Made by a program: the position numbers and the translations under genes
Source: a virus
Strand: one strand, 5' to 3'
DNA: 21,023 nucleotides
IMG/VR virus record: IMGVR_UViG_3300025168_017463
Location: 1-21,023 of that record
The notes under the pieces: model-generated
What the model saw: only the letters and a program-made list of their open reading frames with translations
Database searches by the model: none
Told to the model about the DNA's origin: nothing
In this document: positions 3,490 to 18,667 of the stretch, one piece after another
How positions within the stretch are numbered: the first letter of the stretch is position 1
Layout: each line of letters opens with the position of its first letter

Positions 3490-4130
3490 ACGATCTCGTC
3501 GACTAGTCCGTATTCTAAACAAGTCTCTGCATCGAACCAGACATCTCTTTTGAGAATCTCGCGAAGCTTCTTCTTTGGAATCTTTGTGTGTTTATCATAA
3601 AGACCTTTAATAACCTCCATGATAAGATCGTTGTTTTGCATTTGATCTTTCTGCTCTTCATACTTTCCCCACATTCCTGAAGAAAGTTGGTGAATTAGCA
3701 TGAAAGAGTTCTTTCGAATTGCTCTTCTAGTTCCGACGATGCTCATAAGGGTGGCTGCGGAGGCCGCACAACCCTCTACAAGCGTACAAACAGGCACATT
3801 TGATGCTTGGATGGTGTCAACGGCAGAAAGGCCGGCAAACACGCTTCCTCCAAAGCTATTAATGTGAAGGTAAATGTTTCCGGGCACTTTTGTTTTCAAA
3901 AGGTTCGTTTGGTTAACAAGGTTGGTTCCTAAACTATTAATATTCTTGTTTAATTCCAAAATCTTCGGTCGACTAACCTCTGAATAAAAATAGATGGTGT
4001 TGTTAACAACGTCAACAATATGATCTTTGTCTCTTGTCACATTTGTGGGTGATGTGGTATGAGCAGATAGCGGTGGGGGCGTCGGGGTAACCTTTCTACG
4101 TCCCGCTGCCCAAAAATAATCTTCGTCCAA
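3486..4130 (-). CDS. ClpP-like serine protease
   Basis: ClpP/crotonase-fold peptidase of 214 aa. The triad aligns with ClpP: S124 in EGCAASAATLM, H147 in FMLIHQ and D196 in LKRDVWFDAE just before the conserved EYGLVDEIV. The oxyanion Gly pair is in NSFGGSVFAG (about 92-100). Residues 1-40 are a Pro/Thr-rich extension not found in bacterial ClpP. Phages use ClpP-like enzymes either as prohead proteases or as stand-alone proteases; no capsid gene lies beside it here, so the role stays open. The start is TTG at 4130, supported by AAGGAG 6 nt upstream. It converges with the plus-strand trypsin-like gene, with overlapping stop codons. Confidence 0.9.
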   Translation of the reverse strand: MDEDYFWAAGRRKVTPTPPPLSAHTTSPTNVTRDKDHIVDVVNNTIYFYSEVSRPKILELNKNINSLGTNLVNQTNLLKTKVPGNIYLHINSFGGSVFAGLSAVDTIQASNVPVCTLVEGCAASAATLMSIVGTRRAIRKNSFMLIHQLSSGMWGKYEEQKDQMQNNDLIMEVIKGLYDKHTKIPKKKLREILKRDVWFDAETCLEYGLVDEIV

Positions 4131-4990: not shown

Positions 4991-5554
4991 TTACCAAGCT
5001 TTACAGGACCAATATCTAGCCTTCCATTTTGGACCCGGATTGTCACAATTGTGTCGTGCTCTAAAAGACTTACGTCGTTTTGGGTTTGATTTCTTGATTC
5101 TCATATTTGGATCACCAAAATTAACCTTAACGACATTACCTTTTGCGTTTTTTACATAAACCTTAGATTTCTTTACATCGCCTCTCATTGGCTTATTTAA
5201 AGTAACCTTTCGGCCTTGATATTCTGCTTCTTCGATTACATCATCCCAAAATTCAAGGTCTTCTGCAACTGAGCCGTCCTCATAAGTTGCGTCTGTGATG
5301 TGATAATACTCTTCTTCTAAACCCATCTTCTCTTCTCTGCGATCAGATAAAGAGCTTGCAGCTTGCATTAAAAGATTCTCGTAAGCCTCTTGTTGAACAG
5401 GGCTTAATGTGTTGTGAGTTTGTGATAGACTCTGGGCTGTTTCACGAATCATGTTGTTAAATGCCGTAGCTTCATCTTCTGGTGTTGTTTCTGATAAGCT
5501 ATTTTTTAACTCTTCGCGGATTAATTCTCTAATTCTTGCTTTGGTGATTTTCAT
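4991..5554 (-). CDS. Modular phage protein: N-terminal IREEL helix plus basic Cys C-terminal module
   Basis: Residues 1-21 form a charged amphipathic helix (TKARIRELIREELKNSL) that recurs in other proteins of this window. The middle (about 22-110) is acidic and helical. The last 70 residues are very basic, with the segments VYVKNAKGNVVKVNFGDP, RRKSFRARHNCDN and a final KARYWSCKAW. From memory this C-terminal module occurs on assorted proteins of marine T4-like phages; I know no biochemical function. The ATG overlaps the stop of the upstream 307-aa gene (ATGA), so the two are translationally coupled. Both end in basic, Cys-containing modules. Confidence 0.8.
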   Translation of the reverse strand: MKITKARIRELIREELKNSLSETTPEDEATAFNNMIRETAQSLSQTHNTLSPVQQEAYENLLMQAASSLSDRREEKMGLEEEYYHITDATYEDGSVAEDLEFWDDVIEEAEYQGRKVTLNKPMRGDVKKSKVYVKNAKGNVVKVNFGDPNMRIKKSNPKRRKSFRARHNCDNPGPKWKARYWSCKAW

Positions 5555-6474
5555 TTCTTTTTACCCCACTTCTTTCCTTTGCCTTTTGAATCGCAGGCTG
5601 CTGGTGTTGGCCGGCAGGAAGGATATTTTGCTCTCTTTTCGCCTTCTTTTCTCCCACAAGATTTACAAGTCTTTTTTCCTGTTTTCTTGTCTTTTCGACA
5701 AGTGTTACAATCCACCCATCCTTTTGACTTGCCTTTTCCGCCTTGTCGAGAGAACCATTTATGAAGACCCTCTTTCTCTTTTAAAAAAGATTCAAGTTCT
5801 TCTTCGATGATTTCTCTAAGTCGACTTTCGCTAACGCCTTTCCAAATTTTACCTTGTCGACACCTCACAACTGCTCCTGAAGCATATGCGGATGGCCAAA
5901 CATCATACTTACGTTTTGCAATACGAGTGCATCGGTCGTCTTTCTTTTCTTCTAGATCAATACCCAGTTCTTCTGCGTCTTCTTCTCTGTCCTCGCGACT
6001 GGAAGCTTGATATTGTTCGTCTTCTTCTTGAAGACCACTAGTGTTTTTCTCTTGCCACTCGTTTGACGTCTTGTCCTCGGAGATAGGACCGCCGGCTGCC
6101 CAAGTATAACATGATCTTGCTGAGTGGCATTTAAAGTGATGCATCCAGCAGTAACCAAGCTTTCCTTCTGCGTCCTCAATTGGTTCAGACACTGGTCCCG
6201 GAAGGCACTCAAGCATTCTGGGAGATATATCAAAAGCGATACAATTACCGCAACGAGATTTCTTTGCAACCTCTGGATCAGTATTCCAATGTTCGGCTGC
6301 ATTTGTCCAATATTCTTGATCATCTAAGTTCAAAGGACCATACTGAATATGTTCGGCCTGAATTGCAGCGTCTCTGTTCTTTGTATTGAGTTCTAAGTCT
6401 TGTGTGGCCGGGGGGCAGGGAAGCTTTCCTGATTGTTCCACTACTTTTCGCCAACTTTCGAGTAACTTCTTCAT
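5551..6474 (-). CDS. Multi-module Cys-rich protein with HiPIP-like domain
   Basis: Four parts are visible. (1) Residues 1-14 (MKKLLESWRKVVEQ) are an N-terminal helix of a kind common on marine phage proteins. (2) About 42-132 resembles a high-potential iron-sulfur domain: C75-x2-C78, GYC at 109, then SCYTWAAGGP with C122; C90 and C116 are extra. (3) About 181-212 contains KRKYDVWPSAYASGAVVRCR, a short module I recall from giant viruses and phages. (4) About 216-232 is the shared SRLREIIEEELESF helix, followed by a basic Cys module (WVDCNTC, CKSCGRKEGEKR, YPSCRPTPAAC). No SD is visible; an 18-nt palindrome lies just before the start. The function is unknown. Confidence 0.8.
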   Translation of the reverse strand: MKKLLESWRKVVEQSGKLPCPPATQDLELNTKNRDAAIQAEHIQYGPLNLDDQEYWTNAAEHWNTDPEVAKKSRCGNCIAFDISPRMLECLPGPVSEPIEDAEGKLGYCWMHHFKCHSARSCYTWAAGGPISEDKTSNEWQEKNTSGLQEEDEQYQASSREDREEDAEELGIDLEEKKDDRCTRIAKRKYDVWPSAYASGAVVRCRQGKIWKGVSESRLREIIEEELESFLKEKEGLHKWFSRQGGKGKSKGWVDCNTCRKDKKTGKKTCKSCGRKEGEKRAKYPSCRPTPAACDSKGKGKKWGKKK

Positions 6475-6480
6475 AACTTT

Positions 6481-6498
6481 AAGTAGTTCAAACTACTT
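6481..6498. repeat. 18-nt perfect palindrome at the uvsE stop
   Basis: AAGTAGTT-CA-AACTACTT is a perfect inverted repeat (8-bp arms, 2-nt centre). It includes the uvsE stop codon (6488-6490) and ends 7 nt before the ATG of the 307-aa gene. It is not followed by a T-run on either strand, so it is not an intrinsic terminator. It could be an mRNA hairpin shaping translation of the next gene, which lacks an SD, or a protein-binding site. Confidence 0.55.
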
Positions 6499-7447
6499 GA
6501 TAATTCTTTTCAACTCTGTTTTTTTCCAGCAAAAGATCTTTCATTTTGAATAGTCCGATCTCTTTGTGTTTGCATTCGAGCATAACATCGACATCGTGGC
6601 CGAACGTATTAACAGGAAGCCAGTACGAATCAGAATGAGCATTAGGGCGAATTTTTGGATCGTTTTGTTCATCAGGTCTAGATTGTGAATAGTGTACTAC
6701 GGGCTTGACGTCGCCCCAAGTCTTGACAGCTAAAGACAAAGCTTCTTTGTTAGTCAAATCGCCAGTGCAAAATAAATGATGATGAAGATCATGCACAACG
6801 GGAATTCCGATGCGCGTATATACATCTTCGCAAAGTTCACGAGTTGAATAGAGAGAGGCTTTGTCGTCGTTCTCAACAGTCAACCTAGATTGGACTGCTG
6901 GGGATAGACGTTCAAAGTTGCGACAAAAGTTGTCGACAGCCATAGGCTTATCATTATAATGCGCTCCGACATGAATGTTAAGCTTGTTGAACGGTGTACG
7001 GGACAAACCAAGCATGTCAAAGACCTCTCCGTGTGTTTCTAAGTCTTTGATAGTATTGATTACAACCCGCTCGGAAGGGGAAGTAAGTTTGTTGAATGGA
7101 CCGGGATGACTAGTGATACGATGGCCGTGGTCTTCGATATAATCGCCGGCGTCTTGAAGTACACCACAGATCTCTTCATAATCTGGAAGATCTGACAATC
7201 TGTATTCTGACGACCATGGAAACAGATCCGAGGATATCCTGAAGAACCGAATGTTACGACGCTCATTCCACTGAAGGATCTTAATAAGATCTTTGCAGTT
7301 GGCTAAAGCTAGCTCAGAGGCGTATTTAAGCCCTCTGGCTTTGAAGGTACGCTTGATCATTGAGCGATTGGTAGTAACGCGCTTGGCTTTGGGCGCATTG
7401 GATAGTTCCATGTTGATACATGCATAGCCTAAGTTATGTTCTTTCAT
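6488..7447 (-). CDS. uvsE: UV damage endonuclease (UVDE/UvsE)
   Basis: A TIM-barrel metal-dependent nuclease that nicks DNA 5' of UV photoproducts and begins an alternative excision repair. Family motifs follow in order: LGYACIN (6-12), RISSDLFPW (70-78), SHPGPFNKL with H114, NIHVGAHYNDK with H159, TVENDDK with E192, VVHDLHHH with D220/H223, VHYSQSR with H252, AHSDSYW with H271 and MLECKHKE with E291. These correspond to the three-metal ligand set. Length (319 aa) is normal for the family. The ATG at 7447 has no SD, and a TTGACT-17-TAGAGT promoter ends 6 nt before it. A repair enzyme fits a phage exposed to sunlight. Confidence 0.95.
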   Translation of the reverse strand: MKEHNLGYACINMELSNAPKAKRVTTNRSMIKRTFKARGLKYASELALANCKDLIKILQWNERRNIRFFRISSDLFPWSSEYRLSDLPDYEEICGVLQDAGDYIEDHGHRITSHPGPFNKLTSPSERVVINTIKDLETHGEVFDMLGLSRTPFNKLNIHVGAHYNDKPMAVDNFCRNFERLSPAVQSRLTVENDDKASLYSTRELCEDVYTRIGIPVVHDLHHHLFCTGDLTNKEALSLAVKTWGDVKPVVHYSQSRPDEQNDPKIRPNAHSDSYWLPVNTFGHDVDVMLECKHKEIGLFKMKDLLLEKNRVEKNYQVV

Positions 7448-7453
7448 AGTAAT

Positions 7454-7482
7454 ACTCTATCAGTTTAGAAGTTAAAAGTCAA
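7454..7482 (-). promoter_or_regulatory. Putative promoter abutting the uvsE start
   Basis: TTGACT (7477-7482) and TAGAGT (7454-7459) are separated by exactly 17 nt on the minus strand. The -10 ends 6 nt before the uvsE ATG, so the predicted transcript would be leaderless, consistent with the missing SD. The -35 is 5/6 and the -10 4/6. Confidence 0.45.
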
Positions 7483-7483
7483 G

Positions 7484-7573
7484 TTATTTTTCAGATTGGT
7501 AAAAGAGTGAGAGATATATCGATATACTGAGACAAGTTGTCCAAAAAAGTATCTCGTCTGCGTTCATTCGCAT
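7484..7573 (-). CDS. Possible 29-aa membrane peptide
   Basis: A short reading frame between tRNA-Thr and uvsE with an AAGGGG Shine-Dalgarno just before the ATG. It encodes a brief polar start (MRMNADE) followed by one hydrophobic/aromatic stretch (ILFWTTCLSISIYLSLFY) and a polar end, the layout of a single-pass microprotein. It contains a 12-nt palindrome (7515-7526, TATATCGATATA). It may be chance; the SD is the main argument for it. Confidence 0.3.
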   Translation of the reverse strand: MRMNADEILFWTTCLSISIYLSLFYQSEK

Positions 7574-7593
7574 TTACCCCTTATATAACTAGG

Positions 7594-7666
<73 letters not shown>

Positions 7667-7671
7667 TTGGT

Positions 7672-8376
7672 TTAAATTGTTCTTCGGTGTAAGTCTAAAA
7701 ATGGAGAAGGCGAGGGTGCCGAAAGAATTTGTTGTGCTACCTTCTCTACAATTTCGGCCCTAGAATCCTTGTTATCTCTTTCTTGATCCCATGGTACCTC
7801 GATAATATTGACTCCTTGATTTCTTAAGACATTAATCATATTGACATTCTCTTCATATAAATTGTAAAGATAGCCTACATCGATTGTTGTCTCGCATTTC
7901 CTACCGGTTTCCTTCTCCATTCTTGCCTTGATTCTGTCAATAGCGACAATGGGGTTTACCATCAGATGCACACAAAAATTTGGAAGAAGCACGGTGGAAG
8001 TCATTGAGTGATATATGTTTCTATAAGTCTCAAACTCGTTTTCACTCATAGAGCCGTTCTTAATCTGAAGTCTGGCAAAGGCTGTATCTCCAAAATAAGA
8101 TCGATCCAGCACAGCATTGCCGTTTCCGTTGATCGAGTGCCACTGCGCATTTAAGTGCATCTTATACCGAGCTTGAAGAAGATGAACCTGCATCGTAAAC
8201 GCCCATCGGCTTTGATTTTCATAAAAGGAGGATAGATAAGGGTTGGCGTTATCTTTCTCGTCAGGTTCAAGGAGCAACAACGTGTCCTCCCCAAGTGCTT
8301 GACTTAATTCTTTAGAGAAGGTGCTTTTACCCGCTCCGATGATTCCTTCGACAATAGTAACCTTTCCACAATTCAT
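7672..8376 (-). CDS. Deoxynucleoside kinase (dNK family)
   Basis: P-loop kinase of 234 aa that phosphorylates deoxynucleosides for the dNTP pool. The P-loop is GIIGAGKST at 11-19, LLEP at 35-38 matches the family's substrate-side Glu, DRSYFGD at 91-97 is the catalytic/substrate DRS motif, and the Arg-rich lid is IKARMEKETGRK at about 149-160. It is closest in look to the dGK/dAK branch; exact specificity cannot be told. The SD AAGGAAAA precedes the ATG. The gene lies between two tRNA genes, 27 nt after tRNA-Arg and 5 nt before tRNA-Thr, so it is probably freed from the transcript by tRNA processing. Confidence 0.93.
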   Translation of the reverse strand: MNCGKVTIVEGIIGAGKSTFSKELSQALGEDTLLLLEPDEKDNANPYLSSFYENQSRWAFTMQVHLLQARYKMHLNAQWHSINGNGNAVLDRSYFGDTAFARLQIKNGSMSENEFETYRNIYHSMTSTVLLPNFCVHLMVNPIVAIDRIKARMEKETGRKCETTIDVGYLYNLYEENVNMINVLRNQGVNIIEVPWDQERDNKDSRAEIVEKVAQQILSAPSPSPFLDLHRRTI

Positions 8377-8403
8377 TTTTTTCCTTTTAATTTAAATGAG
8401 TAG

Positions 8404-8477
<74 letters not shown>

Positions 8478-8485
8478 ATGCTACT

Positions 8486-8515
8486 ATACTAACACACCTA
8501 CACAGCATTTGTCAA
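8486..8515 (-). promoter_or_regulatory. Promoter for the tRNA-Arg/dNK/tRNA-Thr unit
   Basis: A perfect TTGACA (8510-8515) is followed after 18 nt by TAGTAT (8486-8491) on the minus strand. The expected start point, about 8479, is 2 nt before the tRNA-Arg 5' end. It sits in the short gap after the 108-aa gene. Confidence 0.55.
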
Positions 8516-8523
8516 GTATCTTC

Positions 8524-8850
8524 TTAACAGGAACAGGCCCCACAATAGCAAGGAGCATTGGGGCATTTAAGTTCTTTATCTTGTATATACTGTTCAATAG
8601 TATAAGGATGATCAACCGCATTTCGGTTGTGACCACATACTAAGCGCCACCAAGCATTGAAGGTTTCCTTGTGGCATTTATTTTTGATTATATGATAAAG
8701 AGGACTTTGATTTCTTGGATCAACAAAGCTTTTGTAGATTTCTGCGGCTTTTTGAATTTCCTTATTGGTTAATTTAGGTTTAGCTTCTTCCCATGGGTTA
8801 GGTGCTGACCGCACCTCATCAAACCAATCAGTTACCTTGTTGTTCTTCAT
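8524..8850 (-). CDS. Small protein with Cys-rich tail (108 aa)
   Basis: No family recognised. Residues 1-90 are polar with several Trp (W9, W20, W67, W68). C59-H60 and C72-G-H74 could bind metal. The last 13 residues, CPNAPCYCGACSC, hold five Cys and resemble a zinc or Fe-S binding knuckle. An SD GAGGAAA lies upstream of the ATG, which overlaps the end of the preceding 68-aa gene. It is third in the tubulin-like operon. Confidence 0.75.
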   Translation of the reverse strand: MKNNKVTDWFDEVRSAPNPWEEAKPKLTNKEIQKAAEIYKSFVDPRNQSPLYHIIKNKCHKETFNAWWRLVCGHNRNAVDHPYTIEQYIQDKELKCPNAPCYCGACSC

Positions 8851-9034
8851 TCTTAAGTTTCCTCGATTTTACAACAAACTTATCATTCTCGCGTCTTCTG
8901 ACTTTAGCTTGATGAGTACCTTCTGTAATGATTCTCGTGCGTTCACTATCAGCTTCTTCAAACGAAACAAATTTACGACTGACCGTCCATGGACGACCTT
9001 GCTTCCTTACTTCTGGTTCTGCTTCTACTTCCAT
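8828..9034 (-). CDS. Small basic protein (68 aa), translationally coupled to the tubulin-like gene
   Basis: A short Glu-rich start (MEVEAEPEV) is followed by RPWTVSRKFVSFEEADSER and a basic segment AKVRRREND-FVVKSRK, giving a probable small beta/alpha fold of about 60 aa. Its ATG lies inside the last codons of the tubulin-like gene, which is typical of partners made in fixed ratio. It has no SD of its own. The function is unknown; an accessory factor or DNA-binding partner of the filament is possible. Confidence 0.7.
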   Translation of the reverse strand: MEVEAEPEVRKQGRPWTVSRKFVSFEEADSERTRIITEGTHQAKVRRRENDKFVVKSRKLKNEEQQGN

Positions 9035-10065
9035 TCTAAGCCACTCATTGACATGATTGCAATAAGGCCGGGAAGACCTTCCTTTATATATACTCCAGAA
9101 AAGAGAGTCTTTGTTCTACCACCGACATATGCAGTCGCAGCGTCGATATGTTTACTAATTTCTGGATCATTTGCCATTTCTGGTGTGATTACAAAAAGAA
9201 TCGAGCCAGTATCTGGCTTTCCTCGTGGCACTGGACAAGGAGAACGCTTAATACAGTTCTGGAATATCGAAGCCCCAAGATTTGAGTCTGAGGGGTCTGT
9301 GACCAAAGTTGTACCAAGTATCATTCTCTTCTTTGTCATAAGACATTTCTCAAGATCTTTCGAATCAAACGTCTGAATTGGAGAAGTCTCAGAGGATAAT
9401 TTAAAAACTTGAGCTAGCATCTTAGCAAAAGCGGTGTTCGCTGCGGGATAAAGATTGAGCATGCCAACTTTACCTCTGAGCATTTGAACTTGCTTTTCAT
9501 TACTAAGAGCGATGTGAGGGAGTGCAGAAACGTCCTTAAGCAATGAATTTGCATTTTCATTAATTGTATCGTTAAGTGATTCTTGTGCGGTCGGAACTGT
9601 TACTACATAAACAACAGTGCCTGTTGCTTGTACTGATTTAAGATATCTTGCGAAGACATCCTTTAATGCTCCAGAAGCAGAACCGGTACCACCGCCGCCT
9701 CCGGCCAGAACGAAAAGCCAATCAACCTTTCCAAGTTTTGTGCGCAATGCATCCTCAACTACAGTTCCATTGTCTTTAAGAACTTTCTTTCCAAAGTTAA
9801 CATCCTTACCAACACCATCTGAATCAGGAATCAACACAAGGTGCTGAGCTTCTACGCCTTCAGGTTGGTCTTTCTCTGTGGTATTAACCAACAGAGTCTT
9901 GCTAAATCCAATATCGATAAAAGCTTTTGCAAGCTTCCCGCCTCCGCCTCCAATGCCGACGAAGCCAACATTTAAAGCTGATATAGCTGTATTTTCAGGT
10001 AATAAATCACCACCGGTCTGCTCAACCTCTGCACCGTAATGATCTACGAAATCAAAATCACTCAT
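9025..10065 (-). CDS. Tubulin/FtsZ-like GTPase
   Basis: 346 aa from the ATG at 10065, chosen because GGAGAAAAG precedes it; a longer in-frame start lacks that support. Tubulin-superfamily motifs: T1 loop VGIGGGGGK (36-44), tubulin signature AGGGGGTGSASG (121-132), PTAQESL after strand S5 (T5 area), NEKQ (T6), and FDSKD at 233-237, matching the DxxD/E catalytic T7 loop needed to hydrolyse GTP in the neighbouring subunit. It ends soon after the C-terminal domain with no FtsZ-type tail for FtsA/ZipA binding, so it is unlikely to be a host division FtsZ. Phage tubulins (PhuZ) centre replicating DNA, and plasmid/phage TubZ segregates DNA. Which applies here is open. Confidence 0.92.
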   Translation of the reverse strand: MSDFDFVDHYGAEVEQTGGDLLPENTAISALNVGFVGIGGGGGKLAKAFIDIGFSKTLLVNTTEKDQPEGVEAQHLVLIPDSDGVGKDVNFGKKVLKDNGTVVEDALRTKLGKVDWLFVLAGGGGGTGSASGALKDVFARYLKSVQATGTVVYVVTVPTAQESLNDTINENANSLLKDVSALPHIALSNEKQVQMLRGKVGMLNLYPAANTAFAKMLAQVFKLSSETSPIQTFDSKDLEKCLMTKKRMILGTTLVTDPSDSNLGASIFQNCIKRSPCPVPRGKPDTGSILFVITPEMANDPEISKHIDAATAYVGGRTKTLFSGVYIKEGLPGLIAIMSMSGLEWK

Positions 10066-10183
10066 TTTTTCTTTTCTCCATATAAAAAGCGCTGAACAGC
10101 CCAAACCCTCTGTCAGCAAAGTCCACCCTTAGGGTTCAATTCACTAATAATAACCTATTTTTAAAATTAATTTAAGTATATAT
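10066..10183 (-). other. Leader region of the tubulin-like gene
   Basis: Non-coding on present evidence. It holds a small inverted element ACCCT-T-AGGGT (about 10123-10133) and the SD of the tubulin-like gene. No iterons resembling a tubC centromere were seen by eye. Confidence 0.3.
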
Positions 10184-10359
10184 CTATGAGTTGGCTTTTC
10201 TCTCGCTCCAAAGCCATACTAGCCTCTCTTCACATTTCGCATTACAATAGCTGGATTTCGTTAGAGACAATGAAAACCGACATTTGAAGGATACTCATAG
10301 AAAGATGTCCAACGACTTGCGTCTCCTTTCTTCAGGACATAAAAATATAACTAATTCAT
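10184..10359 (-). pseudogene. Broken small gene with Cys-containing C-terminus
   Basis: An ATG at 10357-10359 with an ideal SD (GAGGAAAG, 10363-10370) is followed two codons later by TAG. The same frame then runs open through KKGDASRW, TSFYEYPSNVGFHC and stops. A -1 shift continues as LTKSSYCNAKCEERLVWLWSERK to a TAG at 10184. The joined product would be about 57 aa with a Cys/His pattern (HC, YCNAKC) suggestive of a small zinc-binding protein. Two lesions, one amber and one frameshift, make a pseudogene the simplest reading; sequencing errors or recoding are alternatives. A strong promoter precedes it. Confidence 0.4.
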
Positions 10360-10386
10360 TTACTTTCCTCAATTTGTTTACATAAT

Positions 10387-10415
10387 AATATAGCTTAAAA
10401 AAAAGTTAAAGTCAA
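10387..10415 (-). promoter_or_regulatory. Sigma70-like promoter upstream of the broken gene and tubulin-like gene
   Basis: TTGACT (10410-10415), a 17-nt spacer and TATATT (10387-10392) on the minus strand. It overlaps the 3' end of the HTH gene. The predicted start, near 10380, leaves about 20 nt before the SD-ATG of the broken gene and a leader of about 315 nt before the tubulin-like gene. Confidence 0.6.
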
Positions 10416-10786
10416 TCTTTTTCTTCGAAGTAAGATTCGATCTGATATTTTTTAACCAGTTGATTAAACCTATTTTTATCTAATCCAAGAAATCTAGCAG
10501 CCTCCATCTTAGTTGATGTAGCTGAGTATGCATACTTTAAAACAGCATCGTTAGTAATGTTTTTTAGAGAATACCAAATTGGTAAACCATAAAGCATACC
10601 TCCAGCCGCTTTAGCTGCTAATTCTAGTTTCAGACCAATGACTTCTTCAAGACTTAAGTTATTTAACATAACTTCAAACTCGTCAGTACTTTTACTTTGT
10701 TTTTGAAGTTTTTTACTTAAAGAAGACTGTCTGTTTTTTCCTTGAGTCTTTTTATTCAATTTACTTTGTTTATTAAAGCTAACCAA
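10412..10786 (-). CDS. Fis/NtrC-type helix-turn-helix DNA-binding protein
   Basis: 124 aa. The C-terminus carries a Fis-like HTH at about 82-115 (AYSATSTKMEAARFLGLDKNRF, then NQLVKKYQI), similar in form to the DNA-binding end of NtrC-family regulators. Residues 1-35 are Lys/Gln/Ser-rich and probably disordered. Residues 40-72 hold a Leu-rich helix and a Gly/aromatic segment, which may allow dimerisation. The start is uncertain: no ATG exists before codon 40, and the frame begins with TTG at 10786. It lies directly upstream of the tubulin-like operon and could regulate it. Similar HTH proteins occur in T4-like marine phages (recollection). Confidence 0.75.
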   Translation of the reverse strand: MVSFNKQSKLNKKTQGKNRQSSLSKKLQKQSKSTDEFEVMLNNLSLEEVIGLKLELAAKAAGGMLYGLPIWYSLKNITNDAVLKYAYSATSTKMEAARFLGLDKNRFNQLVKKYQIESYFEEKD

Positions 10787-10839
10787 GTTAACCAGTAGTT
10801 AATAGATAGGGTAGCATATATTTTAAATTTTGTTAAGAC

Positions 10840-11592
10840 CTATAGATTAAGATCATCACTGAAATCAGGCGTCTCTTCAGGTTCATTTGCTGGCTCTGGT
10901 ACGCTAGGTTCTGGTAATTCTTGCTGAAGTTCATCTTCAAACTTTTTGAAATAAAGATCCAAATTAATTAAAAGATAGTCGTAAAAGATATCACGATCCT
11001 CAGGAGTATCAAGTTTCTCGTAACCTTTCATGATTTGATTTTCAATTCTTTTGAATGCGTCATAAGCAAAGTTTCTACCAGTTTTATCTTCACCCTCAAT
11101 TCCGAATTCATCCTCAGGAGATACTTCAATCTCTTGCTCAGCGTCTGGTCTAACATCGATAAAAGCTTCGTCTTCTTCATCACCAACTTCAATATCAATC
11201 TCTTGCTCAGCAATAGGATCTTCGACAACACCGTCTTCTTCTGGGCCAACTCTTTCTGTAGCTAACAGATTCTTAACAGCGTTAAGGATATGATTTTTAA
11301 AAGAAGTTCTCTGCTCAGTACTGGTGGTGAGTTGTTTAAACTCTTCTTCGAGAATCTTAATAATTTCTTTAAGCACCTTCTCAAGCTGGTTTCTACCAGT
11401 CATCTTCTCAGGTACTCCTGCTCCAACTGTTGTCTCAGAAATAAGATTACGAATCACTTGACGAAGTTTAGCTTCTTCAAGAAGTTGTTCTTTCATTCCA
11501 GCATCTCTTTTTTCTTTGACGATATTGATTGCTTTTCTAATTTGTTTTCTGAGCATTTGCTCTTGAGCGAAATTAAGTCTATCGATTTCCAT
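10840..11592 (-). CDS. Acidic helical protein with IREEL-type helix
   Basis: 250 aa. Residues 1-55 are charged helices, including EAKLRQVIRNLISE at 40-53, related to the helix shared across this window. Residues 60-110 are helical (coiled-coil-like). Residues 115-165 are very acidic with a near-repeat (AEQEIDIEV / AEQEIEVSP). The end is Pro/Glu-rich. Composition recalls phage head-core, scaffold or structural accessory proteins, but there is no homology I can name. The ATG overlaps the stop of the 803-aa gene (TAATG), with GGAG 7 nt upstream, so the two are coupled and probably co-produced. Confidence 0.75.
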   Translation of the reverse strand: MEIDRLNFAQEQMLRKQIRKAINIVKEKRDAGMKEQLLEEAKLRQVIRNLISETTVGAGVPEKMTGRNQLEKVLKEIIKILEEEFKQLTTSTEQRTSFKNHILNAVKNLLATERVGPEEDGVVEDPIAEQEIDIEVGDEEDEAFIDVRPDAEQEIEVSPEDEFGIEGEDKTGRNFAYDAFKRIENQIMKGYEKLDTPEDRDIFYDYLLINLDLYFKKFEDELQQELPEPSVPEPANEPEETPDFSDDLNL

Positions 11593-14003
11593 TATATTGC
11601 TCCATTTTGCCTTAATAAATAGTTCATAACACCCTCAATAAGCTCAGCTTCTTCTTCTAAAGTGTGAGATTTCTTTTTCTCATCTTCATTTTCTTTTTCA
11701 ACATCTGAGCCCGGGAAGGTTGCCGCTGCATGGCCGGCTACATTACCTCCAGCCATTGAAGATACTTCTTCCATGTTTTTTTCTACATCGATTTGCTTTT
11801 CATCATCTAGGATATAATCCCCATTTTTATGAAGACCAACATCTTGCATTCCTTTGATAGCGTTCTTGATTTTCTCTTCACTACTTTTGGTGTGATCTTC
11901 GAGAGCACCCATTCCTGCGGCACCGCCTTCATCTTTGAGAGCTTTTCTTATTTTACTCTCAAGATTCTCCTCAGCTTCTTTTGCCAAAAATGCATTTGAA
12001 ACTTTTGGTCGTTTATTTGGGAAAGAGGATCCCGGATCTTGAGGTCCGCCATCTAAATAAACAGAATGAGCCTTCTTAAGATGTTTTTTCATTTTCTTTT
12101 GAAATTCAGATTCAACTAACTTAATAAGTTTTTGTTCTAAAGTCATCTCAGCCGGCCCACCTTCGCTGATTCCAAACAGTCTGATTATTTCATCTTGATA
12201 TTGGAGGACATGTTTTGGGAGGAACGAAAGAAGCGCATCGATGTTTTGGGCCTTTGCAGCCTGTCTCATGTTCGTAGCGTTTAATTGCTCTTTTGGATCA
12301 AAAGCATATTCCATTGGGTTCATAACTCTCACGCCTTCTTTTGCATAAGCCTGAACGTCGCGAGCAAAACGAGCTTGATCTCCACCTTTTGTGCTTGCGC
12401 CGAGAATAACACATTCGTTACCTTTCAGATTTCCATCATCACCGGTGAATTCGTAAGCCGCTCTAACAGGAGATCTCATTGAAGATACCACAACTGTTAC
12501 ATTTGGAAGATTGCTTGTGTACATGTCCCAAAGTGCTTTCGACTGAGCTACTCCAACATCAGCTTGAGTTTCCGCGTCAAAGCCTTTTCTTTCACTTGCA
12601 GCTAATGGAGAAATCAAAACAAACACTTTTCCAGCAGAGCCAACAATACTACTATAATGTTCTATCATATCGTAGTGTCCACGGTGCGGAGGCTTGAAGG
12701 CTCCCGGAATTACAGCGATAAGTTCATCGCAGAGGTCAAGATCGGCCTCATAGAGGCCCTCAGAGGCCCCCTCTTCGTCCAAAGCCTGCAAAGCAGGAAC
12801 ATTCCCTCTTCCATACCGGAAAAGCCCTAAGATTTGATTTGCGGGCGCAAAGTTACCTGTGAACTTATAAGTCTTTCCATTATAATCAAACACAAAACCT
12901 TCAACTGCAGTAGAGATCCCTTCAATGCTTTTGAGTTTTCTCATCTGCAGTTGAAGAATTTTGAGTGCTTCTACGTTATCAGAAGCTTCAATTGCCCGAA
13001 TTGCTTGTGAAACTTTGTTTCTAAGTCTAATCACCTCCTTGGTGTTGTCTAGAATAAAGGCACTGTGCAGTCCCTTGAGCATTTCTACGGCAAAATCATG
13101 AATAATGTCCTCAATTTGGAGGGTTGAGTTCTTTAAAAGGTCTTTTGAGCTTTTAACGATACCTCTTACAATCTCCTTACTTTCACGGTCTAGACCCTTT
13201 ACAACTTGGTTAAAACCGACTCCTTTGACGCCAAATATGCGTTTTATGAGCAATTTCTTGTTTTTTTCGGGTAATTCGACCTGTTTTTCGATAAAAGGGA
13301 CGATTTTTGCGATAATATAGTCAGAAATCGTCTGTCTATCGCTAATTCCGTACTTATTTATCTCTTTTTCGAGTCTCTCAACAGCAACGTTCAAAGCTCT
13401 GTCATCATCAAGACCTCTGAGGCGTTTAATGGCATTTCTCTGGACGTTATACTCTTCTTTTTCAATTGCGGACTGCATTTGATTTAAAGCTCTGTCCAAA
13501 GCTCGCACGTTCTTCGACACATCAATATCTTTTATAGTTCCGGACTCTCTATCAAACTCGGCGTGACCTACTTGATGAATATTAAGAGTTTTTGTATCAT
13601 AATTGATTATATTTGCAGTTCTAGGATCCTGAATCTCTGCATTATAATATATATCCGCATTCGGACCAAATATTGCCATTTGAGCTTCCGGATCAAGTGA
13701 CTGAACCGCCTTTTCAAATGTTTTAAATGAATCAACAAATGCGGACTCCAGCGCCCCGCGACCAGCAAACTTCTGAGCCAACTCTTCAGCGGTCATTCCG
13801 CCGGATTTGATATTGCCTTTATTTCTAGCGGCTTTGGCTCTTCCGGTTTGCACGGAATAAGAAATAAACAGATTTTGACCGTCTGTCTTTTCGGTACCTT
13901 CTAACTCACCATTGGAAGCCATGGCGAAAACATCTTTGATCTCTTTGAATGTTAGCTCTGGATCTTCGTGCAGATGCGACATATGTCCAGCTACTCCACC
14001 CAT
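11592..14003 (-). CDS. Two-domain nucleotidyltransferase: ligase-type domain fused to HxGH domain
   Basis: 803 aa. Domain 1 (about 1-400) has the motif set of covalent nucleotidyltransferases (DNA/RNA ligases, capping enzymes): EKTDG with K39 (motif I), ARNKG 59-63, NAEI with E123 (motif III), VEGFVF with E368 (motif IV) and TYKFTG with K380 (motif V). A helical insert of about 200 aa separates motifs III and IV. Domain 2 (about 425-605) is an NMNAT/cytidylyltransferase-like fold: PGAFKPPHRGH with H440/H443, LGASTKG, and NATNMRQAA in place of ISxTxxR. Residues 615-803 are charged, with short helices (LIKLVESEFQKK, KIRKALKDEG) and an EEAELIEGVMNYL end. RNA ligation or repair coupled to nucleotide or NAD synthesis is plausible but unproven. 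Confidence 0.85.
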   Translation of the reverse strand: MGGVAGHMSHLHEDPELTFKEIKDVFAMASNGELEGTEKTDGQNLFISYSVQTGRAKAARNKGNIKSGGMTAEELAQKFAGRGALESAFVDSFKTFEKAVQSLDPEAQMAIFGPNADIYYNAEIQDPRTANIINYDTKTLNIHQVGHAEFDRESGTIKDIDVSKNVRALDRALNQMQSAIEKEEYNVQRNAIKRLRGLDDDRALNVAVERLEKEINKYGISDRQTISDYIIAKIVPFIEKQVELPEKNKKLLIKRIFGVKGVGFNQVVKGLDRESKEIVRGIVKSSKDLLKNSTLQIEDIIHDFAVEMLKGLHSAFILDNTKEVIRLRNKVSQAIRAIEASDNVEALKILQLQMRKLKSIEGISTAVEGFVFDYNGKTYKFTGNFAPANQILGLFRYGRGNVPALQALDEEGASEGLYEADLDLCDELIAVIPGAFKPPHRGHYDMIEHYSSIVGSAGKVFVLISPLAASERKGFDAETQADVGVAQSKALWDMYTSNLPNVTVVVSSMRSPVRAAYEFTGDDGNLKGNECVILGASTKGGDQARFARDVQAYAKEGVRVMNPMEYAFDPKEQLNATNMRQAAKAQNIDALLSFLPKHVLQYQDEIIRLFGISEGGPAEMTLEQKLIKLVESEFQKKMKKHLKKAHSVYLDGGPQDPGSSFPNKRPKVSNAFLAKEAEENLESKIRKALKDEGGAAGMGALEDHTKSSEEKIKNAIKGMQDVGLHKNGDYILDDEKQIDVEKNMEEVSSMAGGNVAGHAAATFPGSDVEKENEDEKKKSHTLEEEAELIEGVMNYLLRQNGAI

Positions 14004-14008
14004 TTAAA

Positions 14009-14299
14009 TTATCCCTCTGTTGTTTCCGTTACGGTTTCCGTTATAGTATTGGTTTTCGCTTTAGCTTTTTTTGTAGTGGAAGCTTTGGCTTTTTTTATAG
14101 TACCGGCACGAACAGTTTTTGTTTGTGTTGCTTCAATACTAGTCACCTTTGCTTCAAGGCGACCTACCTTCTCTGTCTCACGACTCAAAAGTACCTGCAG
14201 ATTCTCAATTGTTTGAGTGAGAGCCTCGATCTCTTGCGTCATACCTTGCACATCGCCTGCTTTAAGCAGAGCCATCTTTGCAGCCTTACGTTTACCCAT
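14009..14299 (-). CDS. Lys/Ala-rich coiled-coil protein (96 aa)
   Basis: The start at 14299 is chosen because GAGG lies 6 nt upstream and the ATG is 2 nt after the previous stop. Residues 1-60 contain a heptad-like helix (MTQEIEALTQTIENLQVLLS, then ETEKVGRLEAKV). Residues 70-96 are Lys/Ala/Thr-rich (IKKAKASTTKKAKAKT), like histone-H1-type nucleic-acid-binding tails. It is likely a small oligomer that binds DNA or RNA or decorates virion proteins. No named family. Confidence 0.7.
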   Translation of the reverse strand: MGKRKAAKMALLKAGDVQGMTQEIEALTQTIENLQVLLSRETEKVGRLEAKVTSIEATQTKTVRAGTIKKAKASTTKKAKAKTNTITETVTETTEG

Positions 14300-14301
14300 A
14301 A

Positions 14302-14961
14302 TTACCTCTTCTTTGTGTATTCTTTTAAAAGCTTTCCGTAGAGTGAACCATTGTACCATTCTTTAATAGGGGTTTCTGTAACTTCCTCTTCGGTTTTCTC
14401 TGTGATCTCCTCAGTTGTTTCTTCAACAACCTCTTCGGATGCTTCTTCTTCCTCTTCGTCATCTCTTTTCATAGGATGACCGTGACCTTCAGCCAAGGAA
14501 GCGTTTGTCACTTGGATGTCTTCGAATGCAACACCTTCAAGGATGGTGCCATCTTCTAACTTCATATCATAATGAGTTACGCGACCAATCTCTTCGTTAT
14601 AATTGTGGCTAATTGCTTCTGCCATCTTTGTGGCTCCATCGTGATTTACGCCACCATGGTGAACACAGTAGTGATTAGGAGCAAAGATACCATTAATAGT
14701 CATAGGAATTTCACCATTTTCATTAAGGTTTTCCTCAACGTCATCAGCCGCGTCTTTCATCGACTCTTCTGTATCGCCGTCTTTGTCAAGATCAAGAAAG
14801 TCTGGTTTAGCACCTTCTTCAATTTCTTCGTTCTCCTCGGCAACAGTGCTTTCATTTTCTGCAACTGTCTGCTCTGGTGTGTCTGTTGTGGTTTGCTCTC
14901 CAAGAGCTTTTTCAATTGCTTCCTTAATAACTGCGCGAAGCTTTTCTTCGTTGAGGTTCAT
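14302..14961 (-). CDS. Probable internal-start short form of the zincin-tail protein (219 aa)
   Basis: The in-frame ATG at 14959-14961 is preceded by AAGGAG (14971-14976) with a 9-nt gap, a better ribosome site than that of the full gene. The product would lack the peptidase domain and begin exactly with the shared IREEL-type helix, as the 187-aa protein does. This can be read as a nested gene or as an ancestral separate gene joined to the zincin. Confidence 0.5.
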   Translation of the reverse strand: MNLNEEKLRAVIKEAIEKALGEQTTTDTPEQTVAENESTVAEENEEIEEGAKPDFLDLDKDGDTEESMKDAADDVEENLNENGEIPMTINGIFAPNHYCVHHGGVNHDGATKMAEAISHNYNEEIGRVTHYDMKLEDGTILEGVAFEDIQVTNASLAEGHGHPMKRDDEEEEEASEEVVEETTEEITEKTEEEVTETPIKEWYNGSLYGKLLKEYTKKR

Positions 14962-15381
14962 CGTTTTTTTCTCCTTGATGTTTCTTTGATTTTCCCAATC
15001 TCGGAAGGTCATGTCCATATAGGCTTCCTCTTCCATCTCTCTTAAATAGGGATCAGATTGCGCATATCCCTCTTCTGTTGGTCCTAAATTCTCAAATTTT
15101 CCTTGACAATTCTGTTTATGGTGCACTAATTCGTGATTTAAAGAGCGCATAATGTCCTTGGGGTGACGATTATCTACATATATTGTAACAGAAGAATCAG
15201 AAGGATTATAGTGTGCTGTTTTTCCTAAAGGATTCGCAGCATTATCTAAATCAGATTCAAAAATAATAGCTGGATCATTACTGAACCCCATTGCATCTTT
15301 AGCATAAGGGTAGTATTCATTCACCAACGAAGTCAATTGAGAAAGATCATAATTTGAGTTATTTTTGATTATAGAACTCAT
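14302..15381 (-). CDS. Zincin-domain protein with modular acidic tail
   Basis: 359 aa. Domain 1 (1-135) is a zincin: HELVHHKQ gives H83-E84-H87, and EMEEEAY (116-121) supplies the third ligand Glu. Residues 141-160 (MNLNEEKLRAVIKEAIEKAL) repeat the window's shared helix. Residues 190-210 hold KPDFLDLDKDGDTEESMK, an EF-hand-like DxDxDG calcium loop seen on marine phage proteins (recollection). Residues 225-303 form a His-rich module (NHYCVHHGGVNHDG, GRVTHYDMKLEDGTILEGVA). A Glu/Thr-rich linker and the end EWYNGSLYGKLLKEYTKKR follow. M141 has its own strong SD, so a 219-aa short form is likely. The full-length start has AGGGAA close to the ATG. Confidence 0.8.
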   Translation of the reverse strand: MSSIIKNNSNYDLSQLTSLVNEYYPYAKDAMGFSNDPAIIFESDLDNAANPLGKTAHYNPSDSSVTIYVDNRHPKDIMRSLNHELVHHKQNCQGKFENLGPTEEGYAQSDPYLREMEEEAYMDMTFRDWENQRNIKEKKTMNLNEEKLRAVIKEAIEKALGEQTTTDTPEQTVAENESTVAEENEEIEEGAKPDFLDLDKDGDTEESMKDAADDVEENLNENGEIPMTINGIFAPNHYCVHHGGVNHDGATKMAEAISHNYNEEIGRVTHYDMKLEDGTILEGVAFEDIQVTNASLAEGHGHPMKRDDEEEEEASEEVVEETTEEITEKTEEEVTETPIKEWYNGSLYGKLLKEYTKKR

Positions 15382-16576: not shown

Positions 16577-18667
16577 TTACTCGTCAGAAACAGAACAGGC
16601 AGTATCTTCAAGAACTTGCATTAAATGATTGAACATAACGGAGGCGTCCGGTGTGATTTGATACCACTCTCCTACGTCACCAGCGGTAGTGAGAGCTTGC
16701 CAGCCAGCAGGCCATTGTGTCCATGACCCATTAATATATTTAGAAGCGTCGAATACCTTTGTTCCTTCCGGAGAGAATACAAAAACTTTCAGATCTTCTG
16801 TTCCATTAATAGCGCTAACTACAATCTCTTGTGATATCGCATCACCTTTTGTGGTCGACCCTCCGGGCGGTGCTAAGAACGATTGCCCCATCTCGTCAGT
16901 AAACACAACTATAACTCTACTTGCATCTTCTCTCCAGTTCACTTCCCATGCGGCAATGACAGGATCGGATATGTTAGAGTATCTCCACTGAAGGTCCGAT
17001 ACTTGATATTCAAGCATTGTCGGATCACAGACATTTAATAGAGATAGATATATAGCGTCATAAAGCGGCTCTAGACCACCGTTAAGAGGCGTATTATCGA
17101 TATCTTGGACAGCAGCTAAGAAATTACTAAAAGGCCCCATATTGGTCTTAAGGTGAAGTTTTTCTTTATACACTGTGGTATTATGGGTTGGACCGACAAC
17201 GAGAGCCCAATTAATATTAGGCTCGTCTTGATAAGATAAAGAGAAAGAAGTTAGCGCAGAGATAACCGCATCGATCTCATCCATCATAGAACCAGATAAG
17301 TCGATAACAAATAAGATATCAGTTTCGCTAAGCTCTTCTTCTATCACTCCGTCACAGTCGTCGTCCTTTCCGTTACAGATCTCCTCTTTTGGAATTACTT
17401 CACCGTCACAGTAATCCTCCATGAATATCTGACCGCCTCCCATGTCGACAAGAGTGCCCCAGTTTCCAGCGTAACATGTTAACTCACCAGCGATACACTC
17501 ACCAACGTCTAAAGTTTCAGGAGGGCCATTATAACAAGCTTTAGCTAAGTCCTCATCAATCAAGAAGTTACAATTGTCATCCCAGTTGTTACAAATTTCT
17601 GGAAAAACCATTCCCTTTAAAGGGTCGCATGGTTGTAAATTAAAAATAGAACAAGCAGTCTTACATTCTGACATTGTAAATTCAGTGCATTCTTCATTTG
17701 CACATTCGCAAGATTTATATCCTTGGCCGCAGATTAAAGGAGGTTCCATACACGGAATTAAAATCCCAACATCTTGGATACTGCACTCGCAATCGATTCC
17801 GTCATCAACTAATCCGTTGCAATCATCGTCTTCGCCGTTGCATATCTCTGGCCATGGCAGTTTGGCTGTGCAAGAAGCCCAAACACCAAAAACACAAGTT
17901 TCATATCCGACGCCGCATACAGTTTCGCATTCTTGCAGCAAGTCCTCATCAGTGTTCCCGTCACAATCATTGTCTAGAGTATCACAAACCTCTTCTGGTA
18001 CTGTGCCACATTCATCACAAGCGTTTCTCTGGCCTTCGTCAATCTCTCCATCACAGTCATTATCAATCCAATCGCAGACTTCTTCGCCCGGACCCTCAGC
18101 TTCACATATAAGTTCCCCATCCACACAATAGGCAGGTCCATTCCCGCACTCGGTTTCACATGTATAAACACCTTCATCGATTTCACCATCACAGTCATTG
18201 TCTTTACCGTCGCAGATCTCTTCTGTACAGGGGCTACAATCTGTAACCTGAACTTTACCTTTATCACAGTATACATCTAAGATACCCGGACTGCCGTCAG
18301 GCATTTGACATGGCTGATTATTGACAATCATAGGATCTAGAGGATCGCAATCATGTTTCCATTTGCAATTTGCTATATCAATAATGGCGTTACCATCGCA
18401 AACATCCATCCAAGCTTCCGCAATCCAATACTCAGTATAAGGAGGGCATCTCAAAAATACTTTTGTTAGACAACTATCTTTGTACTCTGCTGTGAAATCA
18501 GCTAATGGGTCGTGAATTGGGATGTCAAGTAACGTAAATACATCAGGTATTGGCGGAGGCAACGTTTGAGTGTCCTCTAATGGCTGTTTTGTCGGCGAAG
18601 GGGCGAAATCCATCGTCCCACAGGCCGAAATTAAGAAAAACAGCAAATATTTCAAGGTTTTATACAT
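16577..18667 (-). CDS. MopE-type metal-binding-repeat lipoprotein with VWA domain
   Basis: 696 aa. The signal peptide ends in ISAC (lipid Cys at 16). Residues 60-145 are Cys-rich. Six copies of the E(I/V)CDGxDNDCDGxxDE motif lie at about 150-166, 196-212, 226-242, 274-290, 357-373 and 429-445. This 'putative metal-binding' repeat is abundant in Myxococcota and related to the copper protein MopE; its Asp spacing resembles calcium loops. Residues 450-690 are a von Willebrand A domain with MIDAS DLSGS (456-460). Repeats and VWA together suggest a surface adhesion or metal-dependent binding protein. It is unusual in a phage. No SD is obvious before the ATG. Confidence 0.9.
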   Translation of the reverse strand: MYKTLKYLLFFLISACGTMDFAPSPTKQPLEDTQTLPPPIPDVFTLLDIPIHDPLADFTAEYKDSCLTKVFLRCPPYTEYWIAEAWMDVCDGNAIIDIANCKWKHDCDPLDPMIVNNQPCQMPDGSPGILDVYCDKGKVQVTDCSPCTEEICDGKDNDCDGEIDEGVYTCETECGNGPAYCVDGELICEAEGPGEEVCDWIDNDCDGEIDEGQRNACDECGTVPEEVCDTLDNDCDGNTDEDLLQECETVCGVGYETCVFGVWASCTAKLPWPEICNGEDDDCNGLVDDGIDCECSIQDVGILIPCMEPPLICGQGYKSCECANEECTEFTMSECKTACSIFNLQPCDPLKGMVFPEICNNWDDNCNFLIDEDLAKACYNGPPETLDVGECIAGELTCYAGNWGTLVDMGGGQIFMEDYCDGEVIPKEEICNGKDDDCDGVIEEELSETDILFVIDLSGSMMDEIDAVISALTSFSLSYQDEPNINWALVVGPTHNTTVYKEKLHLKTNMGPFSNFLAAVQDIDNTPLNGGLEPLYDAIYLSLLNVCDPTMLEYQVSDLQWRYSNISDPVIAAWEVNWREDASRVIVVFTDEMGQSFLAPPGGSTTKGDAISQEIVVSAINGTEDLKVFVFSPEGTKVFDASKYINGSWTQWPAGWQALTTAGDVGEWYQITPDASVMFNHLMQVLEDTACSVSDE

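What the first reader, a model, noticed from the sequence alone, without database searches (positions are those of the whole stretch)
4991..15381. A shared LRxxIREEL-type helix tags several unrelated proteins
Seen: closely similar charged helices occur in the 187-aa protein (RIRELIREELKNSL, N-terminal), the 307-aa protein (RLREIIEEELESFL), the 250-aa protein (KLRQVIRNLISE) and the zincin protein (KLRAVIKEAIEKAL, at an internal start). A weaker version is in the 803-aa protein (KLIKLVESEFQKK). Partners differ completely: peptidase, Cys modules, nucleotidyltransferase. Known: T4 uses a short N-terminal capsid-targeting sequence on internal head proteins. Inference: this helix may be a sorting tag that loads proteins into the virion or a phage compartment.
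Basis: partly seen in the sequence, partly recalled or inferred. Interest (0 to 1): 0.65.

Follow-up and report, generated by a model that had tools for sequence, protein, structure and literature searches.

The report
Cargo-loading tags in T4-like phages
Hundreds of unrelated proteins in a large group of uncultured T4-like phages carry one of two short helical tags that end in the cutting motif of the phage head protease, which suggests that the tags load proteins into the phage head for delivery into the next host.

Summary
The helix is real and far more widespread than one window. A profile finds 650 copies in 4.4 Mb of fetched phage sequence and none in the reversed proteins. The 250-aa helix is a shorter, family-conserved relative; the 803-aa helix is not supported.

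The tag stops at L/I-x-E, the published cutting motif of the T4 head protease gp21: LxE 2.7-fold and IxE 1.5-fold enriched, VxE and MxE not. All 12 records of at least 100 kb chosen without reference to the tag encode gp21. All 24 major capsid proteins read carry L-x-E at T4's maturation site. A second tag (MKLLxENWRKFLNE) replaces the first on the same cargo and opens the window's 307-aa protein.

Best reading: capsid-targeting sequences like those of T4 internal proteins, in two new forms, on 563 cargo clusters. Packaging and cutting are inferred; no virion data were available.

The parts
5489..5554 (-). Tag A at the N-terminus of the 187-aa protein, MKITKARIRELIREELKNSLSE; predicted cut after E22
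   Evidence: 26.7 bits; same register as 89 forward / 0 reversed matches; 89% identical orthologue in G044 keeps tag and LSE
4991..5554 (-). 187-aa cargo protein; its C-terminal SFRARHNCDNPGPKWKARYWSCKAW module (phrog_7595) also occurs on other proteins
   Evidence: (phrog_7595, 4.6e-12)
6436..6474 (-). Tag B at the N-terminus of the 307-aa protein, MKKLLESWRKVVE
   Evidence: 12.9 bits; homologues with the same cargo begin with canonical tag B, e.g. L256 MRLLLENWRRFLAE. It ends VVE, so cutting here is less certain
5776..5826 (-). Internal tag A of the 307-aa protein, SRLREIIEEELESFLKE, residues 217-233, between cargo modules
   Evidence: 14.6 bits; register match without Met
5551..6474 (-). 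307-aa cargo protein: Cys module (relatives annotated as high potential iron-sulfur protein), phrog_727-like module, internal tag, second Cys module
14896..14961 (-). Tag A-like sequence at an internal start of the zincin gene, MNLNEEKLRAVIKEAIEKALGE; AAGGAG lies 9 nt before the ATG; would give a separate 219-aa tagged product
   Evidence: 11.0 bits, perfect Met-to-E22 register
14302..15381 (-). 359-aa protein: metallopeptidase-like domain with HELVHH, then the tag, acidic stretch and C-terminal module
11434..11469 (-). Short related helix in the 250-aa protein, KLRQVIRNLISE, residues 42-53, conserved with [LI]xE in its family
   Evidence: 13 of 17 homologues keep [LI]xE at the aligned place, 2 shifted, 1 VxE, 1 absent
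12084..12131 (-).
   Evidence: not detected by profile; not conserved

Best explanation
The helix (tag A, consensus MKITKxQLKQIIKEELxxxLxE) is a capsid-targeting sequence of the T4 kind. Its amphipathic first part docks a newly made protein onto the prohead core (the gp22-like scaffold and neighbouring core proteins). The shell of gp23 then assembles around the core, and the gp21-type protease cuts after the glutamate of L/I-x-E, freeing the mature protein inside the head, to be ejected with the DNA at the next infection. A second tag (tag B, MKLLxENWRKFLNE) does the same job and is interchangeable with tag A. Shown here: motif, register, exact protease-motif specificity, link to T4-type head genes, exchange of the two tags, diversity of cargo. 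Inferred: docking, cutting, packaging and ejection.
For: (1) The tag ends at L/I-x-E: of 604 distinct contexts, 449 have [ILVM]xE in residues 16-30 against 228.7 +/- 10.5 shuffled (max 261). The next 15 residues show no excess (106 of 601 against 135.5). LxE is 2.70-fold and IxE 1.50-fold enriched; VxE (1.02), MxE (1.15) and AxE (0.72) are not. E is the only strongly enriched P1 residue (2.06-fold; next N at 1.25). gp21 is published to cut after L/I-X-E (PMC9026906, passage). (2) Anchored on that site in tagged homologue pairs, P1 Glu is identical in 58%, P2 in 12% and P1' in 25% (73 pairs). (3) Of 34 records picked by window proteins without regard to the tag, 30 have tag A and 17 gp21; all 12 of at least 100 kb have both. 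Of 32 tag-picked records of at least 70 kb, 24 have gp21, 22 have gp23, and one of the 8 without gp21 has a T4 portal. (4) All 24 gp23 proteins read have L-[RKD]-E at the site matching T4 gp23 FLTE|A. (5) 10 of 12 large records have a tag within 15 kb of gp21; random mean 3.2, 0 of 10,000. In G039 a tagged 116-aa gene is the next gene after gp21. (6) Tags A and B swap on the same cargo: L385/L256 88.6% identical, L114/L070 76%, L081/L072 65.5%. (7) T4 CTSs are 10-19 aa propeptides on otherwise diverse proteins (PMC9026906 section 2.6 read; PMC3012670 passages). (8) The 185-kb relative G045 of the window phage (FtsZ-like protein 81% identical) has gp21, gp22-like and gp23 genes, 9 tag A and 12 tag B matches, some of the latter weak.
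Against: No protein is shown in a virion and no cut is shown. About a quarter of tag A contexts (155 of 604) have no [ILVM]xE in residues 16-30, and one recurrent cargo family (LDISIDYL) appears to lack it. Some tags are internal, so a cut would split the protein. Eight named phages with gp21 (T4, KVP40, P-SSM2, S-PM2, HTVC008M, phiW-14, RM378, Mel-JY01) have neither tag, so gp21 does not require them. G065 (98 kb) has gp21 but no tag A. Seven of 32 tag-carrying records show none of gp21, gp23 or T4 portal; they may be fragments. G064 and G056 have no tag within 15 kb of gp21. The window itself holds no head gene. Tag B of the window ends VVE, not L/I-x-E. The records are related to each other, so they are not independent.
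Confidence: 0.8

Rival explanations
1. The tag marks prohead core (scaffold) proteins that help to build the head and are then destroyed, not cargo that stays in the virion. Many small acidic tagged proteins would be T4 gp67/gp68-like core parts.
For: Tagged genes sit beside gp21 in some records; the conserved gene after gp21 starts with a similar helix (MNKAELKAVLKPLIKECIKEAIFEE); median cargo is slightly acidic (-0.048 net charge per residue) and short (101 aa).
Against: Cargo diversity is huge (563 clusters, 458 singletons), unlike a core that must be conserved; some cargoes are enzymes or toxin-like domains (thioredoxin, amidase, TseH-like, polynucleotide kinase-like, pentapeptide repeats).
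Confidence: 0.15
2. The tag directs proteins to another place, such as a phage replication compartment, the host membrane or an FtsZ-like spindle, and L-x-E is a coincidence or is cut by another protease such as the window's ClpP-like protein.
For: The window and its relatives encode an FtsZ/tubulin-like protein and a ClpP-like protein.
Against: The end motif is the gp21 motif down to P3 specificity, matches the phage's own gp23 cut site, and the tag occurs inside the head operon.
Confidence: 0.07
3. Chance similarity of charged amphipathic helices or generic coiled coils.
Against: 0 reversed hits against 650; 0 scrambled matches; no significant match in 177,635 distinct PDB sequences (best E 0.11); 9 stretches in 84,980 prokaryote genomes.
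Confidence: 0.01
4. A DNA-level element (recombination seed or regulatory site) that happens to encode the helix.
For: Tags recur at the starts of neighbouring genes.
Against: Synonymous codons vary freely: Leu8 uses all six Leu codons, Ile12 all three, and both Glu codons occur at 14 and 15, among 169 distinct DNAs.
Confidence: 0.02

Closest known systems
T4 internal-protein capsid-targeting sequence (IPI, IPII, IPIII, Alt; MKTYQEFIAE|A in IPII and IPIII)
   Same: N-terminal propeptide on otherwise unlike proteins; ends at L/I-x-E, the gp21 motif; phage encodes gp21, gp22 and gp23; tag B shares the layout MK....E....[FY][LI]xE
   Different: Different sequences; tag A about 22 residues with a KxxLKxIIKEE helix; many per genome (27 in G022) and two interchangeable types; internal tags and a likely internal start occur; neither profile finds T4's own sequences
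phiKZ / SPN3US propeptides removed by gp175 / gp245 (A-X-E in SPN3US)
   Same: Gp21-type protease, Glu at P1, propeptides of 20 and 24 residues among the substrates (PMC10052503, passages)
   Different: P3 Ala there; here P3 is Leu or Ile, and AxE is depleted (0.72)
P1 DarB N-terminal 30-residue capsid signal
   Same: Short N-terminal sequence enough to carry a reporter into the capsid (PMC9024508, passages including part of the abstract)
   Different: Different head type, a single large protein; sequence not compared here

Membership tests
T4-type capsid-targeting sequence (CTS) | Sits at the N-terminus as a 10-19 residue propeptide | tested here: met
   Met at the tag start in 513 of 601 tag A and 96 of 109 tag B hits; predicted cut sites fall at residue 22 (A) and 14 (B), slightly longer for A. 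In the window: 187-aa met; 307-aa internal copy not; zincin only by internal start
T4-type capsid-targeting sequence (CTS) | Ends in the gp21 motif L/I-x-E | tested here: met
   for tag A (LxE 2.70x, IxE 1.50x, VxE 1.02x); for tag B ([LI]xE at 12-14 in 216 of 282, a set partly selected with E14)
T4-type capsid-targeting sequence (CTS) | Genome encodes a gp21-type prohead protease | tested here: met
   12 of 12 tag-independent records of at least 100 kb; 24 of 32 tag-picked records. In the window itself: absent, it is a 21-kb fragment
T4-type capsid-targeting sequence (CTS) | Same tag on otherwise unrelated proteins | tested here: met
   838 cargoes fall into 563 clusters, 458 of them singletons
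T4-type capsid-targeting sequence (CTS) | Sequence similarity to MKTYQEFIAE | tested here: not met
   Neither profile finds a match in T4. So: works like a CTS, common descent not shown
T4-type capsid-targeting sequence (CTS) | Carries proteins into the prohead core | not testable with these tools
   Needs packaging assay or virion proteomics
T4-type capsid-targeting sequence (CTS) | Is removed by gp21 during maturation | not testable with these tools
   Needs purified protease or mature N-terminal peptides

The most novel reading that the evidence does not exclude
A large uncultured group of T4-like phages runs an open protein-delivery system: two interchangeable loading tags put several to more than two dozen different proteins per phage into the head, with internal tags and internal starts giving several cargoes from one gene. 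The fast-changing, mostly unknown cargo (458 of 563 clusters seen once) would be an arsenal of injected early-infection effectors, which could be listed from sequence alone.
Probability: 0.45. Interest if true: 0.88.

Novelty: new variant of a known kind. Interest (0 to 1): 0.72.

Why it matters
If true, proteins that phages inject at the start of infection could be recognised in uncultured phages from the first 14-24 residues. That would turn hundreds of 'unknown' phage genes into a testable catalogue of candidate anti-defence and host-takeover factors. It would also give two short, exchangeable tags for loading chosen proteins into large T4-like capsids. In print I found only the T4, phiKZ-like and P1 cases. 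Seven full-text searches of the PMC library showed no report of these tags; three of them, on literal motif or topic strings, returned nothing relevant. Subscription papers and bioRxiv were not covered.

Tried and rejected
Rejected: the 803-aa helix as a member. Rejected: generic coiled coil, DNA element and chance. Led nowhere: tblastn of the 32-residue N-terminus against named phages found no match, probably because it is too short. Structure prediction of the 307-aa protein's Cys module was poor (mean pLDDT 37.9), so no fold search was run, and the iron-sulfur label rests only on annotation of distant relatives. A PDB sequence search with that module found nothing. Three accession numbers wanted for the control panel (recalled as T5, crAssphage and 0305phi8-36) were not held. 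A test for recurrent C-terminal ends found only a separate small family ending EVISESR or EVINESR.

Caveats on counts: the strict DNA pattern and the profiles built from it favour MKITK-like tags, so counts are lower bounds for degenerate tags. Pair statistics include many pairs from few clusters. The tag B figure includes loci fetched with a pattern that already asked for E14. The Pfam and PHROG scans covered the 100 longest of 155 cluster representatives with cargo of at least 110 aa. The position test used coordinates typed. Loci from the named phages T4, Mel-JY01, DSL-LC01 and the control panel were left out of the profile counts. Names such as terminase, gp22-like and portal in G039, G041 and G045 are my reading of the sequences (recalled); gp21 there rests.
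Full report
The observation. All five peptides exist. The window is an IMG/VR virus record of exactly this length, so nothing more of its own genome can be searched.

The helix as a class. They are often on neighbouring genes. The same pattern with its codons scrambled gave 0. In one genome for each of 84,980 prokaryote species it gave 9 stretches on 6 contigs of 5 metagenome-assembled genomes, among them a 306-kb and a 101-kb contig with 8 and 7 matches; I suspect binned phage but did not test it. A profile built from these and iterated once gave 650 hits of at least 12 bits in 4.44 Mb of fetched phage DNA and none in the reversed proteins. Against 177,635 distinct PDB sequences the best E was 0.11. 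Codons vary freely, so selection is on the protein.

Where the tag stops. Conservation ends at a glutamate near residue 22. In 604 distinct contexts, [ILVM]xE in residues 16-30 was seen in 449 against 228.7 +/- 10.5 in shuffles. Broken down by residue, only Leu (2.70-fold) and Ile (1.50-fold) are clearly enriched two places before Glu; Val (1.02), Met (1.15) and Phe (0.60) are not, and Asp, Gln and Lys do not replace Glu. A plain amphipathic helix would not exclude Val and Met. This is the published gp21 motif L/I-X-E (PMC9026906, passage seen). In tagged homologue pairs the Glu is conserved in 58% while its left neighbour is conserved in 12%.

Who carries it. Of 32 tag-picked records of at least 70 kb, 24 have the gp21 family PF03420 and 22 gp23. 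Of the 8 without gp21, one has a T4 portal and seven have none of the three, possibly because they are fragments. To avoid selection by the tag, I took 34 records found with the window's 803-aa and FtsZ-like proteins (34 of the 80 loci returned, mostly the longer records): 30 have tag A, 17 have gp21, and all 12 of at least 100 kb have both. One, G065, has gp21 but no tag. In those 12, 10 have a tag within 15 kb of gp21, against 3.2 expected, 0 of 10,000 random placements. In G039 the order, as I read it, is terminase, portal, two further genes, a small membrane-like gene, gp21, a tagged 116-aa gene, a conserved gene starting MNKAELKAVLKPLIKECIKEAIFEEG, later a gp22-like gene and gp23. All 24 gp23 proteins read (22 records, 2) have L-R-E, L-K-E or L-D-E at the place of T4's FLTE|A; 25 sequences (with second copies) were aligned with T4 gp23 and the others read by eye. 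Of 14 named phages, only the uncultured 484-kb LR756508 has tag A (13 matches; 8 of 12 reading frames read end in LxE at the cut register) and none has tag B, although 9 of 14 have gp21. The tags therefore belong to certain T4-like lineages, not to gp21 phages in general.

A second tag. Near gp21 and elsewhere, genes start with MKLLxENWRKFLNE. The DNA pattern exceeds 120 rows in IMG/VR; the profile gives 292 hits against 1 reversed. It ends in [LI]xE at residues 12-14 in 216 of 282 contexts; where the Glu is shifted by one, Leu or Ile is often shifted too, as in RKYLLTE and NKFLIAE. Tags A and B replace each other on the same cargo: L385 (A) and L256 (B) 88.6% identical, L114 and L070 76%, L081 and L072 65.5%; six clusters in all met the N-terminal swap test, one of them with a tag deep in its frame. 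The window's 307-aa protein begins with tag B (MKKLLESWRKVVE) and carries tag A inside. Its Cys module occurs in relatives behind tag B (L012, L256, L006), with no tag (L177, L083) and behind an internal A-like helix (L048).

Cargo. 838 cargoes of at least 50 aa fall into 563 clusters, 458 of them singletons. Of the 100 longest of 155 representatives, Pfam finds 15 families, each in one member: pentapeptide repeats, thioredoxin, a TseH-like effector domain, amidase, DnaJ, an AAA_33 domain, leucine-rich variants and a few others; PHROGs add polynucleotide kinase and mostly unknowns. G022 has 27 tag A matches and no tag B; G045 has 9 A and 12 B matches, some of the B matches weak. In G045 two tagged genes stand between the neighbours that are adjacent in the window (118-aa and 249-aa genes there; 124-aa and 250-aa here), which shows cargo turnover at one place.

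The window's five helices again. A strict register from Met to E22 gives 89 forward and 0 reversed matches in 3.9 million residues. Two are in the window: the 187-aa protein, and MNLNEEKLRAVIKEAIEKALGE inside the zincin gene, which follows AAGGAG at ribosome-binding distance. The second is best read as an internal start giving its own tagged product (inferred). The 307-aa internal copy fits without Met (185 forward, 6 reversed). The 250-aa helix is shorter but conserved with [LI]xE. The 803-aa helix is rejected.

Mechanism and comparison. For T4, internal proteins have 10-19 residue propeptides that bind the core; [quoted passage not shown] Another review calls T-even internal proteins a highly diverse set of defence proteins with only a conserved CTS (PMC3012670, passages). 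The tags here have the same two-part build: helix first, cut site last. They work like a CTS. Descent from T4's CTS is not shown, because neither profile finds T4's sequences.

Verdict. Real, widespread, most likely a capsid-loading and processing tag. The kind is known from T4; the sequences, the number of tags per genome, the two exchangeable forms, the internal copies and the breadth of cargo are, as far as my searches reach, new. Docking, cutting, packaging and ejection are not shown.

Noticed in passing
window 5551-6474 (-): The Cys module of the 307-aa protein is annotated 'high potential iron-sulfur protein' in distant phage records; in Actinomycetia phage DSL-LC01 that gene lies directly before two genes annotated as capsid maturation proteases. 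The structure prediction was too poor to confirm the fold.
   Followed up: partly
L290, L116, L272, L260, L356, L368: Several small proteins, many with a VKVGDLV start, share the C-terminal end EVISESR or EVINESR on otherwise unlike sequences, 6 of them in one 20-kb stretch of G045; a fast-diversifying small family.
   Followed up: no
L300, L302 and gp21 loci L126, L127, L130, L131, L283: The gene after gp21 (or the next but one) is conserved and begins with a helix like the tag (MNKAELKAVLKPLIKECIKEAIFEEG); it is followed by a small basic gene that I read as a bS21-like ribosomal protein (my reading, no family search).
   Followed up: partly
L180, L193, L203: Homologues of the window's 803-aa and 250-aa proteins share one reading frame in these loci, so the two may be fused or separated by read-through.
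   Followed up: no
window 16577-18667 (-): 696-aa protein with MopE-type copper-binding repeats and a von Willebrand A-like domain, unusual in a phage.
   Followed up: no
window 9025-10119 (-): FtsZ/tubulin-like GTPase (Pfam Tubulin 1.4e-6) with 66 related loci in IMG/VR, common in this phage group.
   Followed up: partly
window 3486-4130 (-) and 962-2272 (-): ClpP-like protease and a PIN-PhoH fusion protein.
   Followed up: no
NHDW01000006.1 (L258, L262, L263) and PBIO01000025.1 (L259, L261): Contigs of 306 and 101 kb in a Methylococcaceae and a Halobacteriovorax metagenome bin carry 8 and 7 tag matches; probably phage contigs binned with bacteria, a weak hint to hosts.
   Followed up: no
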